This document shows positions 8,455 through 13,849 of a stretch of 64,000 nucleotides of DNA, in pieces (the stretch's first letter is position 1; each line of letters begins with the position of its first letter). The notes under the pieces are model-generated. The model saw only the letters and a program-made list of their open reading frames with translations. It did no database searches and was not told the origin of the DNA. The stretch is from Nonomuraea typhae. Lineage in GTDB: Bacteria > Actinomycetota > Actinomycetes > Streptosporangiales > Streptosporangiaceae. The translations under genes were made by a program, and so were the position numbers. The stretch covers positions 1,054,001 to 1,118,000 of the forward strand of contig NZ_VRLV01000001.1 of assembly GCF_009760925.1 (NCBI RefSeq), read 5' to 3'.

Positions 8455-8900
8455 CACGGGTCGCCGGACGGAGCCCCCGGCGGGCTGACGCCCACGGCCA
8501 GCCGTACCTCGGCCGATCCCGCGGCGGGATGGAGCGGCAGGCAGCGCCCGCCCGCGACGAGCGTGCGGCGCCCGACGGCGGAGGCGATCAGGTCCAGGCG
8601 GTCGTAGCCGACCGGCGTGGCCAGGCGCAGCAGCCACAGGCCCTCGGGGGTGCGCGAGCGGACGCCGTCGAGGGCGTAGTAGTCGAGCACGCCCGCGCTC
8701 TCCGACAGCACCGCGCGCATGGTGAAGCGGCGGCCCTCCACCGAGAACAGCTCGGCGGCGGGCACACGGTACATCGAATGCACGTAGGCGAGGGCGAAGC
8801 CGCCCCCGCCCAGGGGCAGGCCGTGCACGGCCGGGCCGCCCGCGGCGGCGCCCGAGCCGAGCGCCAGCGCCGCGAGCAGCGAGAGTGCGAGCCTGATCAG
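8349..8900 (-). CDS. DUF1850 protein of the TRAP-TAXI operon
   Basis: The frame encodes a signal-peptide-like N-terminus (IRLALSLLAALALGSG) followed by a DUF1850 domain (ALAYVHSMYRVPAAELF, then LDYYALDG). DUF1850 genes typically accompany TAXI receptors and fused TRAP permeases, as here. The best start is a CTG at 8900 that overlaps the receptor stop (CTGA), an uncommon start codon; the next in-frame GTG would remove the signal peptide. The last 36 or so codons run antisense to corA and lie beyond the recognisable domain. Function is unknown; it is probably exported. Confidence 0.7.
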   Translation of the reverse strand: MIRLALSLLAALALGSGAAAGGPAVHGLPLGGGGFALAYVHSMYRVPAAELFSVEGRRFTMRAVLSESAGVLDYYALDGVRSRTPEGLWLLRLATPVGYDRLDLIASAVGRRTLVAGGRCLPLHPAAGSAEVRLAVGVSPPGAPSGDPCYNQSFFLKIVYRATEAPATVTDDIQKPQGWPSPG

Positions 8901-9841
8901 CCCTGCGTCTCCTTGAACCAGCGGGCCGCGCCCGGGTGCAGCGCGACCGGCTCGACCTGCCGGCCGAGCTTCGGGTCCAGCTTGTTCGCCTCGCTGTGCA
9001 CCTTGACCAGCTCGGCCTTCTTCCCGAACAGCGTCTTGGTGATGTCGTAGGCGAGCTGCTCGCCCATCTTGTCCGGCACCAGCAGCACGTTGCCCACGGC
9101 CATGGTCTTGATCGCGCCCTCGAGCTTGTAGGAGCCGGCCAGATCGATGTCCAGCGTCACGTACTGCTTGCCGAACTTGGTCTGCATGGCGCTCAGCACG
9201 TCGCTGGTGTCGAGGATCTTCATGTCCGGCTTGCTCGTGGCCAGGTCCACGATGCCCGCGGTGGGCACGCCGCCGACCCAGAAGAAGGCGTCGATGGTGT
9301 CGTCCTTGACCGCCTGCACCGAGTCGTTGATCGACAGCTGCGACTTGTTGACGTCGGTATCGGGGTTGAGCCCGGCCGCCTCCATCATGCGGCGGGCCAT
9401 GACCTGGGTGCCGGAGTTGGGCGGGCCGAGCGAGACCCGCTTGCCCTTCAGGTCGGAGATCTTGGTGGCGGTCACGCCGGGCGCCACGACGACCTGCGCG
9501 TAGTTGTCGTAGATGCGGGCGATCGCCTTGATCGGCTGCTTCTCGGTGAAGGAGCCGGTGCCGGTGACCGCGTCGGCCGCCGTGTCGGTCTGGGAGAAGC
9601 CGATGTCGGCCTTGCCGCTGACCAGCAGCTTGATGTTGTCCACCGACGCCGAGGTGACCGAGGCCGTGGCCTGGGTGTTGGCGATGCCGGACGACAGCTG
9701 CTTGGCCAGGCCGCCGCCGTAGACGTAGTAGACGCCGGTGGTGCCGCCGGTCGCGATGGACAGCCGGTTGCCGCCGGCGCAGCCCACGGCCGTGGCCAGC
9801 GCCACGACAGCCGCCGCCAGGGTGATGAGCACTCGTTTCAC
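8897..9841 (-). CDS. TAXI family TRAP transporter solute-binding lipoprotein
   Basis: 314-residue extracytoplasmic receptor. A lipoprotein signal (hydrophobic run ending ATAVGC, Cys about 20) is followed by the TAXI hallmark LSIATGGTTGVYYVYGG and later RVSLGPPNSGTQVMA. It binds a substrate, often a carboxylate, outside the membrane for the fused TRAP permease encoded just upstream. GTG 9841 overlaps the permease stop in GTGA, implying translational coupling. The ligand cannot be read from sequence. Confidence 0.92.
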   Translation of the reverse strand: MKRVLITLAAAVVALATAVGCAGGNRLSIATGGTTGVYYVYGGGLAKQLSSGIANTQATASVTSASVDNIKLLVSGKADIGFSQTDTAADAVTGTGSFTEKQPIKAIARIYDNYAQVVVAPGVTATKISDLKGKRVSLGPPNSGTQVMARRMMEAAGLNPDTDVNKSQLSINDSVQAVKDDTIDAFFWVGGVPTAGIVDLATSKPDMKILDTSDVLSAMQTKFGKQYVTLDIDLAGSYKLEGAIKTMAVGNVLLVPDKMGEQLAYDITKTLFGKKAELVKVHSEANKLDPKLGRQVEPVALHPGAARWFKETQG

Positions 9842-11817
9842 GCGGGTGTTCTCCTTCTTCTGATGACATGTACGGCTGTCGCCACTGCGAGCACCGCGAA
9901 ACCTGCGACGATCGGAACGGGTTCGAGGAAGAGCAGGAGCACGCCGGCGACGGCGGCGATCACCCGCTCCGGCACGCCGGTGAAGCCTCCGGTGGCCATC
10001 GCCAGCGCCGCGACCGCCACCGCCGAGACCGCGCTCAGCGCCAGCACCGTCCCGATCGGCCCCTGCCCGAGCAGCGCCTGCCCGTTGGGCGTGAGCACGA
10101 AGGCGAACGGCACGAGGAACGCCGGGAGGGTGTAGCGCCAGGTCATCATCATCGTCTTGTAGCTGTTGCCGCCGGTGATGGCCGCCGCCGCGACGGCCGA
10201 CAGCGCCGTGGGCGGGCTCACCTCCGACAGCACCGCGTAGTAGAAGATGAACATGTACGCCTCGGGCCGGGTGACGCCGAGGGTCATGAGGGCGGGGGCG
10301 ATGATGACGGCGGCGATGATGTAGCTGGCGGTCACCGGCACGGCCAGGCCCAGCAGCATGACCGCGAGCCCGGCCATGAGCGTGGTGAGGATGAGGTTGC
10401 CGGCGGCCACGTCGACGATGATCGAGCTGAGGTTGAGCCCGAGCCCGGTCTGGGTGATGACGCCGACGATGATGCCCGCCGCCGCGCAGACCGCGGTGAC
10501 CGGCAGCACGTCCAGCGAGCCCTTGGCCAGCGCCTGGGCGATGCGCTTGGGTCCCATGCGGTGCTCGGGGTCGAGGAAGGACAGGGCGAAGGCGACGGCG
10601 GTGGCGATGACCACCGACTGGAAGGCCGAGCGGTCCAGCGCCATCAGCACGACGATGAGGATGAGCGAGCTGAAGTGGTAGCCGAAGCGCAGCAGGAGCC
10701 GGCCGGCCTTGGGCGCGTTCACGTCCACGGCGTGCGTGCCGAAGCGCCGCGAGTCGATCTCGATGGCCAGGAAGATGCCCAGGTAGTACAGCAGCGTCGG
10801 GATGATCGCGTACAGCAGCACCTGCAGGTAGCCGACCTGGAGCTGCTCGGCGATGATGAAGGCCGCCGCGCCGAGCGTGGGCGGCGACAGGATCGCGCCG
10901 ATGCCGCTGGCGGCCAGGATGCCGCCCGCGGGCTCCCTGGGGTAGCCGGCGCGCTTGAGCACCGGCCAGGCCACGCTGCCGAGGCTGACGGTGGTGGCGG
11001 TGCCGGAGCCGGAGACGGTGCCGAGCAGGAACCCGGCGGTGGTGACGGTCCGGCCGGGGGCGGCCCGCGAGTTTCGGAAGGCGGCGAAGCTGAGGTCGAT
11101 GAAGAACTTGCTGGCGCCCGAGTAGTCGAGGACGGCGCCGTAGATGGTGAACAGAACGATGTAACTGGCCGCCACCTGCATCGGGACGCCGAAGAATCCC
11201 TCCGTGCCCGTGTAGAGCTGCGAGACGATCTGGTCGAGGTCGAATCCACGATGCGAGATCGGCCAGCTGATGGGCAAATAGTTCCCGAAGTAGGCGTATA
11301 CCAGGAAAATTCCGCAAATGATGCTGAGGGCGCTGCCGACCGTCCGCCGCACCGCCTCCAGAAGCAGCACGGTCAGCCCGACGCCGCCCAGAACGTCCCA
11401 GGCGTTCAGGCTCGAACTCGAGCCCCGGTCACGGAAGGCGTCCATGTCGAGCAGCGGGTAGAGCAGCACCCCGAGCGCCAGCGCCGCCAGCACCCAGTCG
11501 AGCGCGGACGGCCGCTCGTCGCGCTGCTCAGGGGCCTCCTGCCCGCGCCGGCGCCGCACGAAAGAGGCCAGCCCCGAGCGGTAGCACAGGAAGACCAGGG
11601 GCAACGCCACCGCCAGGAACGTCATCCGGTGCTGGACCGGCTCGATCGGCTGAAAGACCACGACGACGGAGTACGCCGACAGCAGCCCGCCGGCGGTCCA
11701 CACCATGAGCCGCAGGGGCCCGGACAATTGGCGGGCGGGGCGTTCCCCTTCGGCGGCCGAGACGAGCTCGGCCGTTCGCTCGCCACTGACTTCTGTCAAC
11801 ACTGGCCTCCCCGTCAT
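9838..11817 (-). CDS. TRAP transporter fused permease (DctQ-DctM)
   Basis: 659-residue permease with about 15 hydrophobic segments. The N-terminal part (about 35-190) corresponds to the small DctQ-like subunit and the rest to the large DctM-like subunit, with TVSGSGTATTVSLG and ILSPPTLGAAAF as typical conserved loops. It energises solute uptake, normally with a Na+ or H+ gradient, with the TAXI receptor. First gene of a three-gene minus-strand operon. Codons near 11270-11330 are unusually A/T-ending. Confidence 0.92.
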   Translation of the reverse strand: MTGRPVLTEVSGERTAELVSAAEGERPARQLSGPLRLMVWTAGGLLSAYSVVVVFQPIEPVQHRMTFLAVALPLVFLCYRSGLASFVRRRRGQEAPEQRDERPSALDWVLAALALGVLLYPLLDMDAFRDRGSSSSLNAWDVLGGVGLTVLLLEAVRRTVGSALSIICGIFLVYAYFGNYLPISWPISHRGFDLDQIVSQLYTGTEGFFGVPMQVAASYIVLFTIYGAVLDYSGASKFFIDLSFAAFRNSRAAPGRTVTTAGFLLGTVSGSGTATTVSLGSVAWPVLKRAGYPREPAGGILAASGIGAILSPPTLGAAAFIIAEQLQVGYLQVLLYAIIPTLLYYLGIFLAIEIDSRRFGTHAVDVNAPKAGRLLLRFGYHFSSLILIVVLMALDRSAFQSVVIATAVAFALSFLDPEHRMGPKRIAQALAKGSLDVLPVTAVCAAAGIIVGVITQTGLGLNLSSIIVDVAAGNLILTTLMAGLAVMLLGLAVPVTASYIIAAVIIAPALMTLGVTRPEAYMFIFYYAVLSEVSPPTALSAVAAAAITGGNSYKTMMMTWRYTLPAFLVPFAFVLTPNGQALLGQGPIGTVLALSAVSAVAVAALAMATGGFTGVPERVIAAVAGVLLLFLEPVPIVAGFAVLAVATAVHVIRRRRTPA

Positions 11818-11901: not shown

Positions 11902-13077
11902 TCAGAAAACCGGCCGCGCGCGTGCCATCAGTTCCGCGACGGGCACGTCGCCCGCCTGCCCGCCGTCGCGCAGCCGCACCGCCGCCCCGCCGGAGGCCGC
12001 CTCCCGCGGTCCCACCACCAGCTGGTACGGCACCAGCCGATGCGCCCGGATCCTGGCCCCGAGGCTGCCCCGGCCGGGGCCGGCCAGCTCGGCCCGCAGC
12101 CCGGCGGCCAGGCAGCGGCGCAGCAGGTCGTGCCCGGCCGCCAGCTCGGCCTCCGACAGCGGCACCACCACCGCCTGCACCGGCGCCAGCCAGGCGGGCA
12201 GCGCGCCGCCGTGCACCTCGACGAGGTGGCCCAGCAGCCGCTCGACGCCGCCGACGACGCTGCGGTGGACCATGGCCGGGCGCCCGCCGCCGGCGTAGGA
12301 CAGCTCGAAGCGGCCGGGCATGTAGAGGTCCACCTGGACGGTGGACAGGGTGGACTCGCGGCCCGCGGAGTCGGCTATCTGGATGTCGATCTTCGGGCCG
12401 TAGAAGGCGGCCTCGCCGTACTCCTCGTCATAGGGCCGCCCGCGCTCGGCCAGCACCGCGCGCAGCACGCCCTCCGCGTGCGCCCACAGGGCGGGATCGT
12501 CGACGAACTTGCCCGAGGAGCCGCCCAGCGACAGGCGGTACCGCGCGGCCTCGATGCCGAGCTGGGCGTGGGCGGCCTCGATGAGGTCGAGCGCGGCCGA
12601 GACCTCGGCGGCGGCCTGCTCGGGCGGGCAGAACACGTGGCCGTCGTTGAGGTGGATGGCGCGCACCCGGTTGAGGCCGCCGAGCACGCCCGACAGCTCC
12701 GAGCGGTACTGCCCGCCCAGCTCGGCCAGGCGCAGCGGCAGCTCGCGGCGGCTGCGCCCGCGCGAGCGGTAGATGAGCGCGTGGTGCGGGCACAGGCTCG
12801 GCCGCAGCACGAACTGCTCGCCGCCGACCTCCATCGGCGGGAACATGTCCTCGGCGTAGTGGTCCCAGTGGCCGGAGCGCTCGTACAGCTCGCGTTTGCC
12901 GAGGACGGGGGAGTTGACGTGCTGGTAGCCGTTGCGGCGTTCCAGCTCGTGCACGTAGTCCTCGACGGCCTTGCGGATGGCCGCCCCGGCCGGGAGCAGG
13001 TACGGCAGGCCGGAGCCGATGAGCGGGTCGGTGCCGAAGAGGCCGAGCTCGCGGCCCAGCTTGCGATGGTCGTTCAT
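11902..13077 (-). CDS. Short threonyl-tRNA synthetase paralogue
   Basis: Class II aminoacyl-tRNA synthetase of 391 residues, against about 640 for housekeeping ThrRS. It has only the catalytic core and the anticodon-binding domain (about 295-391); the N-terminal TGS and editing domains are absent. The three zinc/threonine ligands of ThrRS are conserved with right spacing: C96 (LRPSLCPHH), H147 (LNDGHVFC) and H271 (AMVHRSVVGG). Motif 3 is GGVERLLGHL. A second ThrRS of this kind could give resistance to a ThrRS inhibitor or charge a carrier or tRNA in a special pathway (inference). The gene sits behind a Thr-rich leader peptide and has its AAGGGG ribosome binding site buried in a hairpin. Confidence 0.9.
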   Translation of the reverse strand: MNDHRKLGRELGLFGTDPLIGSGLPYLLPAGAAIRKAVEDYVHELERRNGYQHVNSPVLGKRELYERSGHWDHYAEDMFPPMEVGGEQFVLRPSLCPHHALIYRSRGRSRRELPLRLAELGGQYRSELSGVLGGLNRVRAIHLNDGHVFCPPEQAAAEVSAALDLIEAAHAQLGIEAARYRLSLGGSSGKFVDDPALWAHAEGVLRAVLAERGRPYDEEYGEAAFYGPKIDIQIADSAGRESTLSTVQVDLYMPGRFELSYAGGGRPAMVHRSVVGGVERLLGHLVEVHGGALPAWLAPVQAVVVPLSEAELAAGHDLLRRCLAAGLRAELAGPGRGSLGARIRAHRLVPYQLVVGPREAASGGAAVRLRDGGQAGDVPVAELMARARPVF

Positions 13078-13084
13078 CGTGGTT

Positions 13085-13145
13085 CCCCTTGTCAGGAAAG
13101 GGGGCGAACGACCGTCGCGGCGCGTCTCCGGGCGTTCGCCCGGAG
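13085..13145 (-). promoter_or_regulatory. Attenuator-like leader hairpins before ThrRS paralogue
   Basis: Read on the minus strand, hairpin A (13145-13126) is a perfect stem CTCCGGGC/GCCCGGAG. The segment GGGCGAACG inside it (13141-13133) can instead pair perfectly with CGTTCGCCC (13110-13102). A third hairpin pairs CCCCTT (13103-13098) with AAGGGG (13090-13085), which is the ribosome binding site 7 bases before the ATG. The second pairing and the third share bases 13102-13103, so they compete. No U-tract follows, favouring control of translation over transcription termination. Folding is by eye. Confidence 0.65.
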
Positions 13146-13153
13146 TGCAGGAA

Positions 13154-13204
13154 TCAGCGCGCCGGGACGGTGTCCGGCGTCGTCGTGACGAAGGCGCGCT
13201 GCAT
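13154..13204 (-). CDS. Threonine-rich leader peptide MQRAFVTTTPDTVPAR
   Basis: A 16-codon ORF starts 17 bases after the nucleotidyltransferase stop and ends 76 bases before the ThrRS-like ATG. It encodes three consecutive Thr codons (ACG x3) and a fourth three codons later, 4 of 16 residues. GGTGAG upstream is a modest ribosome binding site. The arrangement (amino acid run matching the downstream synthetase, then competing hairpins) is that of classical ribosome-mediated attenuation. Within the ORF, GCGCGCC (13199-13193) can also pair with GGCGCGC (13163-13157). Confidence 0.7.
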   Translation of the reverse strand: MQRAFVTTTPDTVPAR

Positions 13205-13220
13205 GCGGCTCACCGTAGCA

Positions 13221-13688
13221 TCAGCCGCCGCGGGCCGCATTCACGATTCGGGTGGTCGAGCGGTCGGGGATGGCCTCGAGCTCCCAGCACTCGGCACCGA
13301 GCAGCGCCGCCGCCGCGCACCGGCCGCCGGCGTGCGGGTCGCCGGCGGTGTGGGCCAGCGCGCCCGGGCGCATCGGCGCCATCAGGTCGATGTAGTCCTC
13401 CGGGCCGTGCGCCTCAGGCGGCCCGGTCACGATGAACACGCCGCTCACGCAGCGCAGCGCGGCCAGCACCTCGGCACGCTCGGCCGCCGGGTTGACCGGG
13501 CGGGTCGGGCCCTTCCAGGCACGCACCCGGGGGTCGTCCTCGACGCCGATGACCAGCGGCAGCCCGCGCGCCGCCACCTCCTCGAGATAGCGGACGTGGC
13601 CGACGTGCAGGATGTCGAAGACACCGGTCACGTACGCCGCTCCCGGCTGGTCGTAGGGGCGCACCCACACGGCCTCGAGGCTGCTCAC
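13221..13688 (-). CDS. Cytidylyltransferase-like nucleotidyltransferase
   Basis: 155-residue protein with the nucleotidyltransferase signature [17 protein letters not shown] (HVGH corresponds to the HxGH motif) early in the sequence and a STTRIV segment near the C-terminus, the ISSTxI-like motif. It is related to glycerol-3-phosphate cytidylyltransferase and the RfaE N-terminal nucleotidyltransferase; substrate unknown. GTG 13688 is preferred because GGAGGAG lies just upstream, whereas longer in-frame starts overlap the divergent promoter. It is followed by the Thr leader and ThrRS paralogue on the same strand, so they may be one operon. Confidence 0.8.
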
Positions 13689-13849
13689 CCGTGCTCTCCT
13701 CCGTCCGCGGACTCGTCGATCGCAGCGTACTTGGTCTTCGGGAGCACCCGCGCAGGCGACCATGGGAAAGGGCATTCCTACCTTTTCGCGATAGTCTGCG
13801 ACCCCCGGGCGGCGCGTCTCATGACGATGCCGGAATCGGGGAGGTTGCC

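What the first reader, a model, noticed from the sequence alone, without database searches (positions are those of the whole stretch)
13078..13204. Threonine-codon leader peptide and switching hairpins before a second ThrRS
Seen: a 16-codon ORF with ACG ACG ACG and a further ACC, then hairpin A, an alternative 9-bp pairing that destroys it, and a hairpin that hides the AAGGGG ribosome binding site of the ThrRS-like gene. Known: leader peptides rich in the cognate amino acid control amino-acid genes by ribosome stalling. Inferred: low charged tRNA-Thr, or a ThrRS inhibitor, stalls the leader ribosome and exposes the ribosome binding site, turning on the spare ThrRS. I know of no described system of exactly this form for an actinobacterial short ThrRS.
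Basis: partly seen in the sequence, partly recalled or inferred. Interest (0 to 1): 0.85.

Follow-up and report, generated by a model that had tools for sequence, protein, structure and literature searches.

The report
Threonine-codon switch before spare ThrRS
A 16-codon reading frame with three threonine codons in a row, starting right behind a promoter-like motif and followed by mutually exclusive RNA hairpins, precedes a second, short threonyl-tRNA synthetase gene, and it likely acts as a switch that would turn this spare enzyme on when charged threonine tRNA runs short.

Summary
Upstream of the short ThrRS gene (11902-13077, minus) lies MQRAFVTTTPDTVPAR* (13204-13154). Of 107 distinct short-ThrRS loci collected from Actinobacteria, 105 have enough upstream DNA, and all 105 carry a Thr leader (104 with three or more consecutive Thr codons, one T-S-T). 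The start codon lies 6-7 nt behind a TANNNT motif, so the leader is predicted to be leaderless. A transcript-based study already lists this element once: thrL-thrS in S. lividans, leaderless, termination unclear (PMC8079986, passages).

New here: broad conservation and the switch logic. With a ribosome stalled at the Thr codons, folding pairs the leader's end with hairpin A's 5' arm (0.85); without a ribosome 0.04; with one at the stop codon 0.00. With shuffled leader ends the switch collapses. A second pair of mutually exclusive helices, hairpin-A apex:strand 4 and strand 4:SD, co-varies across 16 sequence clusters (0 of 3600 partner swaps as good).

Against: equilibrium folding keeps hairpin A and the SD clamp in every ribosome position, and hairpin A in the window has no U-tract, so switching would have to be co-transcriptional. 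Best reading: a ribosome-mediated threonine attenuator, possibly two-tier.

The parts
13212..13220 (-). extended -10-like promoter motif TGC-TACGGT, 7 nt before the leader ATG
   Evidence: Sequence. Among 103 leaders found by the scan, TANNNT lies 7 nt before the start in 83 and 6 nt in 20; TGN in front in 76. The scan itself required a spacing of 5-8 nt, so a leader without the motif would have been missed; the loci without a hit were L117 (leader farther upstream) and L118, L146 (contig ends).
13154..13204 (-). leader ORF MQRAFVTTTPDTVPAR* (16 codons and stop), predicted leaderless
13178..13186 (-). threonine codons ACG ACG ACG (codons 7-9), the proposed stall site
   Evidence: ACG in 312 of 318 Thr-run codons of 106 leaders
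13193..13201 (-). strand 1 (CAGCGCGCC), pairs with strand 2
   Evidence: own-versus-swapped z -2.0, 62 of 3600 swaps as good
13155..13168 (-). strand 2 (GTCCCGGCGCGCTG), end of the leader ORF; pairs with strand 1 or with the 5' arm of hairpin A
   Evidence: kept as RNA in three leaders whose reading frame is lost there (L061, L129, L136)
13126..13145 (-). hairpin A (strands 3 and 3'); terminator-like in some relatives, no U-tract here
13100..13113 (-). strand 4 (GGTCGTTCGCCCCC); pairs with hairpin A loop and 5' arm (helix B) or with the SD/start region (helix C)
13085..13090 (-). Shine-Dalgarno AAGGGG of the ThrRS gene, held in helix C
11902..13077 (-). short ThrRS, 391 aa, catalytic and anticodon-binding domains only

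Best explanation
The leader is a conserved RNA element with a run of threonine codons before a spare, editing-domain-less ThrRS gene, and it likely works in cis as a ribosome-mediated attenuator that would raise ThrRS expression when Thr-tRNA charging falls. Shown by sequence and calls: the leader, its association with every testable short ThrRS locus collected here, the fixed distance to a -10-like motif, and co-varying competing helices. Predicted from folding: without a ribosome the leader folds on itself (1:2), and with a ribosome at the stop codon strand 2 is covered; in both cases hairpin A and the SD clamp (helix C) form, which would mean off. A ribosome halted at the ACG codons covers strand 1, so strand 2 would pair with the 5' arm of hairpin A before its 3' arm is made. 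Inferred: hairpin A then fails, so RNA polymerase reads on in lineages where A acts as a terminator, and strand 4 can pair with the hairpin-A loop (helix B), which would leave the SD free. Leaderless translation is inferred here from the promoter spacing; leaderless transcription is reported for the S. lividans homologue.
For: 105 of 105 distinct short-ThrRS loci with enough upstream DNA have a Thr leader. The Thr run and promoter spacing persist in distant loci whose other leader residues differ. By contrast 0 of 49 full-length thrS loci have such a leader with three or more Thr in a row, and 0 of 20 full-length genes in family genomes that also carry the short one (all 40 stretches hold the ThrRS N-terminus with 730 nt or more before it). 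Strand 2 pairs with hairpin A's 5' arm 0.85 with a Thr stall, 0.04 without ribosome, 0.00 with ribosome at stop; the stall-minus-none difference is 0.82 real and 0.17 shuffled, larger in 16 of 16 clusters. Helices B and C: 0 of 3600 partner swaps as good as own partners; the loop, unpaired in A, co-varies with strand 4 (0 of 10000). L061, L129 (frameshift) and L136 (early stop) lose the VPAR end of the peptide but keep the strand-2 RNA, so the RNA rather than the peptide end seems to be kept.
Against: Equilibrium folding shows hairpin A plus helix C in all ribosome positions, mean SD accessibility 0.31-0.33. With A blocked, helix C still wins at equilibrium. Helix 2:3 is not supported by the swap test alone (207 of 3600 swaps as good; strand 2 with loop and 3' arm 101 of 3600), although its strands are nearly invariant and that test has little power there. 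Before the SD emerges, helix B forms partly also with the ribosome at the stop codon (0.29 on average; 0.62 in the eight Nonomuraea-type members tested), which argues against a clean second tier. Hairpin A in the window has no U-tract. L136 stops before strand 2, so there a ribosome at the stop would not cover all of it. No expression data.
Confidence: 0.75

Rival explanations
1. Pure translational control: hairpin A is not a terminator in Nonomuraea; the stalled ribosome only shifts helix C to helix B and so opens the SD. This is.
For: No terminator-like site in 13000-13300 and a mean of 1.85 T in the 8 nt after hairpin A in the cluster of 48 that holds the window; helices B and C co-vary; SD and start codon are held in helix C.
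Against: SD accessibility does not change between ribosome positions at equilibrium; in other loci A is a long GC hairpin followed by TTT or TTTT (L046, L055, L066, L068).
Confidence: 0.35
2. Pure transcription attenuation of the classical kind; helices B and C only mark ordinary structure around the start codon.
For: Strand 1/2/3/3' logic folds as in a classical attenuator; four full-length thrS genes have Thr leaders, followed by GC-rich hairpins.
Against: The hairpin-A loop, which no terminator needs, co-varies with strand 4 (0 of 10000 swaps); many A hairpins lack U-tracts.
Confidence: 0.3
3. The conserved peptide itself acts, for example by arresting the ribosome through its sequence or as a small protein.
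For: M[QK]RA..TTTP[DE].VPAR is conserved in Nonomuraea, most of the other family loci and many loci of the class.
Against: Distant loci keep only the Thr run (L081, L083, L084, L086); L061, L129 and L136 lose the VPAR end but keep the RNA; VPAR codons are strand 2 and QRA codons strand 1.
Confidence: 0.07
4. Reversed polarity: a ribosome at the stop codon weakens hairpin A, helix B forms and the gene is on when threonine is plentiful.
For: In the eight Nonomuraea-type members tested, strand 4 is 0.62 paired in helix B before the SD emerges with the ribosome at the stop codon.
Against: Once the SD region is present, A plus C dominate again; strand 2 would have no role; it makes little sense for a spare synthetase.
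Confidence: 0.07

Closest known systems
thrL-thrS of Streptomyces lividans TK24 (PMC8079986, 2021; passages with Table 4 read)
   Same: Leader MKRVRPFLETTPGFVPAR* before a thrS, transcription reported as leaderless, one hairpin after it; by its sequence the same family as L117 MKRAQPFLTTTPDSVPAR and the window leader.
   Different: Reported for one strain, two Thr codons, termination called unclear; no conservation, alternative pairings or SD clamp in the passages read. That this thrS is the short type is recalled, not tested.
trpRS1 attenuator of S. coelicolor (Vecchione and Sello; recalled, the paper is not held)
   Same: Inducible spare, inhibitor-resistant synthetase under ribosome-mediated attenuation.
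   Different: Tryptophan; recalled as transcriptional attenuation only.
Predicted trpS and leuS attenuators in Streptomyces (Seliverstov et al. 2005, PMC1262725; passages read)
   Same: Classical leader-peptide attenuators before synthetase genes in Actinobacteria.
   Different: Threonine not found there; the paper says no conserved structures were seen for genes of other amino acid pathways.
Leaderless polycysteine sORFs of mycobacteria (Canestrari et al. 2020; seen only as a reference in PMC13236596; paper not held)
   Same: Leaderless short ORF with a run of the sensed amino acid.
   Different: Cysteine; mechanism recalled as translational coupling, not competing hairpins.
thrZ of Bacillus subtilis (recalled)
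   Same: Second ThrRS induced when threonine charging falls.
   Different: T-box riboswitch; no T-box found here.

Membership tests
Ribosome-mediated attenuator | Short translated ORF with a run of codons for the amino acid that the controlled gene handles | tested here: met
   Thr leader in 105 of 105 testable short-ThrRS loci, 104 with a run of three or more; translation itself not tested
Ribosome-mediated attenuator | Mutually exclusive helices whose choice depends on ribosome position | tested here: met
   Strand 2:3 0.85 / 0.04 / 0.00 with Thr stall / no ribosome / stop; shuffled control. Prediction only, in a partly transcribed RNA; at equilibrium hairpin A wins everywhere
Transcriptional (classical) attenuator | Intrinsic terminator with U-tract | tested here: not met
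   In the window 0 terminator-like sites; cluster means 1.0-4.0 T of 8 after hairpin A. So it is not filed as a classical transcriptional attenuator; the transcriptional tier is unproven
Ribosome-mediated attenuator | Expression responds to charging of the cognate tRNA | not testable with these tools
   needs reporter or RNA data
thrL-thrS leader (S. lividans type) | Leader M[KQ]R..TTP..VPAR, leaderless, before a thrS | tested here: met
   Same motif. Leaderless start only inferred here from TANNNT spacing
T-box riboswitch | Match to the T-box family in Rfam | tested here: not met
   No Rfam match at gathering score in the window or at E up to 1 in 13040-13260
Leaderless sORF attenuator (mycobacterial Cys type) | Leaderless start and run of one codon, with no competing hairpins needed (recalled) | tested here: inconclusive
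   First two features met by sequence, but competing helices are conserved here
Canonical bacterial ThrRS | N-terminal TGS and editing domains | tested here: not met
   Only PF00587 and PF03129; TIGR00418 matched from model position 171

The most novel reading that the evidence does not exclude
A two-tier, leaderless threonine attenuator, ancient in Actinobacteria: one ribosome stalled on ACG codons flips a chain of helices (1:2 to 2:3, hairpin A to helix B, helix C to open SD), so that the same event lifts both a transcription stop and a ribosome-binding-site clamp; the near-exclusive use of ACG would make it read one threonine tRNA isoacceptor, and the controlled enzyme would be an inhibitor-tolerant emergency ThrRS.
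Probability: 0.35. Interest if true: 0.75.

Novelty: new variant of a known kind. Interest (0 to 1): 0.57.

Why it matters
It would give Actinobacteria a threonine-starvation sensor for a spare synthetase, comparable to trpRS1 for tryptophan. It predicts when a possibly borrelidin-tolerant ThrRS is made, offers a clean case in which leaderless translation would drive an RNA switch, and gives a conserved, testable example of one stalled ribosome acting on both transcription and translation.

Tried and rejected
Chance: rejected. T-box or other Rfam RNA: no match. Leader exclusive to the short gene: rejected, four full-length thrS genes in genomes where no short one was found also have a Thr leader, one of them T-S-T (L207, L208, L217, L223). 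One full-length gene in a genome with the short one (L231) has a GTG-started ORF with TTT, but without the promoter-like spacing. Weak R1 hits elsewhere: in the phylum search 7 of 14 hits have no Thr leader at the hit and no ThrRS match; in the family search, of 23 hits, 14 are short-ThrRS leaders, six precede a DAHP-synthase-type gene with an aromatic leader (family model checked for L200 only), two are the full-length thrS leaders L207 and L208, and L206 shows no Thr ORF. Equilibrium switch: rejected. In one search an automatic search gave helix B as 'hairpin A' for L001 and others; hairpin A was redefined with a shorter window, and L068 was set by hand because its loop has 7 nt. One literature listing on borrelidin and ThrRS gave residues but no regulatory report in what I saw. 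Alignment A2 was made and not used for a count.

Rows dropped: identical loci were merged; L118 and L146 lie at contig ends; 49 full-length ThrRS loci (by an editing-domain motif upstream in frame) served as controls; ProRS matches were ignored. One search left out 20 loci by hand (L002, L003, L085, L087, L088, L090-L104) as long ThrRS or other synthetases; L104 is at a contig end and undetermined. Two further matches with open frames under 470 aa (G112, G577) end at contig ends 143-195 nt upstream and are undetermined. The match lists were cut by the tool, so weak short-type relatives may be missing. L153 (T-T-A-T) and L163 (TTT) came later and are not in the 107.

Full report
WHAT IS THERE. 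[quoted passage not shown] it aligns with solved ThrRS structures over residues 2-387. The genome holds another ThrRS in a longer reading frame, 44% identical. The closest named relative is Nonomuraea endophytica, 88% protein identity; 29 loci were returned, all but two named Nonomuraea.

CONSERVATION. After merging identical loci there are 107. 103 have, within 340 nt, an ORF of 8-40 codons with at least three consecutive Thr codons whose start lies 5-8 nt behind TANNNT; L117 has it at 370 nt; L016 has T-S-T; L118 and L146 are cut by contig ends. Thus 105 of 105 testable loci. Two further loci (L153 T-T-A-T, L163 TTT) agree. In the distant ones only the Thr run and the promoter spacing remain, e.g. 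L081 MAGLRSTTTTTGLPPAVCRVR, L083 MQHLRALTTTTGAVPEV, L086 MHHHARTTTATEHAPEAGSSR. Controls: 0 of 49 full-length thrS loci have such a leader with three or more consecutive Thr, two have two. In the family, 0 of 20 full-length genes in genomes that carry the short one and 2 of 20 in genomes in which no short one was found have it (all 40 stretches hold the ThrRS N-terminus with 730 nt or more before it). Two more full-length cases were found by the RNA model, one of them T-S-T (L207, L208). One of the 20 with the short gene (L231) has a TTT-containing GTG ORF without the promoter-like spacing.

LEADERLESS START. The spacer from TANNNT to the start codon is 7 nt in 83 and 6 nt in 20 of 103; TGN precedes it in 76; an SD-like motif lies before the leader start in only 2. 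By general knowledge of promoters this puts the transcript start at or next to the ATG. For S. lividans the homologous thrL is reported as transcribed leaderless (PMC8079986).

THE SWITCH. I used 106 leaders in 16 clusters at 80% identity; four clusters hold 93 of them, and the window's cluster of 48 mixes Nonomuraea with other genera. Partner strands were compared with partners swapped between clusters: helix B (hairpin-A apex:strand 4) own -26.3, swapped -21.2 kcal/mol, 0 of 3600 swaps as good; helix C (strand 4:SD region) -16.0 against -13.2, 0 of 3600; helix 1:2 62 of 3600; helix 2:3 207 of 3600 and strand 2 with loop and 3' arm 101 of 3600, which I do not count as support; four controls 1081-2576 of 3600. 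The loop alone, which is unpaired in hairpin A, co-varies with strand 4 (0 of 10000), and strand 4 with the 3' flank of the SD (37 of 10000), but not with the 5' side of the SD (5006 of 10000); loop against strand 2 gives 842 of 10000. In RNA exposed only up to the 5' arm of hairpin A, that arm pairs with strand 2 at 0.85 with a stall at the first Thr codon, 0.62 at the last, 0.04 without ribosome and 0.00 with a ribosome at the stop (up to 15 leaders per cluster). Shuffling strand 2 gives 0.54 and 0.38 for stall and no ribosome; the real switch (0.82 against 0.17) is larger in 16 of 16 clusters (up to 4 leaders per cluster, 25 shuffles each). L061 and L129 are frameshifted and L136 has an early stop after the Thr run, yet all three keep the strand-2 RNA.

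AGAINST. In full-length RNA at equilibrium, hairpin A and helix C dominate in every ribosome position and mean SD accessibility stays at 0.31-0.33. If A is blocked, 2:3 forms but C persists. Hairpin A is 1.6-15.6 kcal/mol better than the best fold without it in 15 of 16 cluster examples and equal in one. So the switch, as in the classical trp case (recalled), would have to be kinetic. Helix B before SD emergence is 0.54 if A is blocked and 0.10 if A is allowed during a Thr stall, but 0.29 with a ribosome at the stop (15 of 16 clusters), so its exact role is inferred. No terminator-like site with U-tract is found at A in the window, so termination there is doubtful. Ribosome footprint edges were assumed, not measured.

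THE ENZYME. The Cys, His and motif-2 Arg positions that I recall as zinc site and active site are kept in all variants printed. At two positions that I map by motif and recall to human Q566 and L567 (E. coli L489), next to the borrelidin side pocket, 88 of 93 distinct short enzymes have Tyr, Phe or His at the first; the second is Gln in 81, Met in 7 and Leu in 5. The window enzyme has Tyr-Met. Full-length enzymes have Leu at the second site in 36 of 49, Gln in 8; the window genome's own long enzyme also has Gln. Mutations at H309 and L489 of E. coli ThrRS are reported to raise the borrelidin Ki 300- to 1000-fold (PMC4389257, passages), but Leu489Met did not protect against obafluorin (PMC11252418, passages). 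Tolerance to an inhibitor is thus a lead, not a result.

PRIOR ART. Nine paper searches in an open-licence library gave one report of this element among what I read, PMC8079986. Seliverstov 2005 (PMC1262725, passages) predicted attenuators for trpS and leuS, not thrS. I found no description there of its conservation or alternative pairings; most subscription papers are not covered.

VERDICT. A real, strongly conserved threonine leader, very likely an attenuator; new variant because of the two competing layers; function untested.

Noticed in passing
L200-L205 (G021, G023, G008, G040, G010, G007): A leaderless-looking leader rich in aromatic codons (e.g. MQRKFWRFYGYRPSGRTVALLALR*) with a terminator-like hairpin precedes a DAHP-synthase-type gene (family model checked for L200 only); an aromatic amino acid attenuator by its looks.
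   Followed up: partly
L207, L208, L217, L223: Full-length thrS genes in genomes in which no short ThrRS was found carry their own Thr leaders (TTT in three, T-S-T in L208) and a GC hairpin; in 20 genomes with the short gene the full-length gene has none at the promoter-like spacing.
   Followed up: partly
window 13186-13178 and 106 leaders: The Thr run uses ACG in 312 of 318 codons, while five window genes use ACC 67, ACG 34, ACA 3; this may point to one tRNA isoacceptor or to an RNA constraint.
   Followed up: partly
L061, L129, L136: Leaders whose reading frame is lost after the Thr run (frameshift in L061 and L129, early stop in L136) but whose strand-2 RNA is kept.
   Followed up: partly
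L078, L117, L035-L038, L060: Some short ThrRS genes have long N-terminal extensions, repetitive and rich in His, Asp and Pro in L078.
   Followed up: no
window 13221-13775 (minus): A cytidylyltransferase-like gene ends directly before the leader promoter.
   Followed up: no
window 8897-11817 (minus): TAXI-type TRAP transporter genes (solute-binding protein and DctM) lie directly downstream of the ThrRS gene.
   Followed up: no
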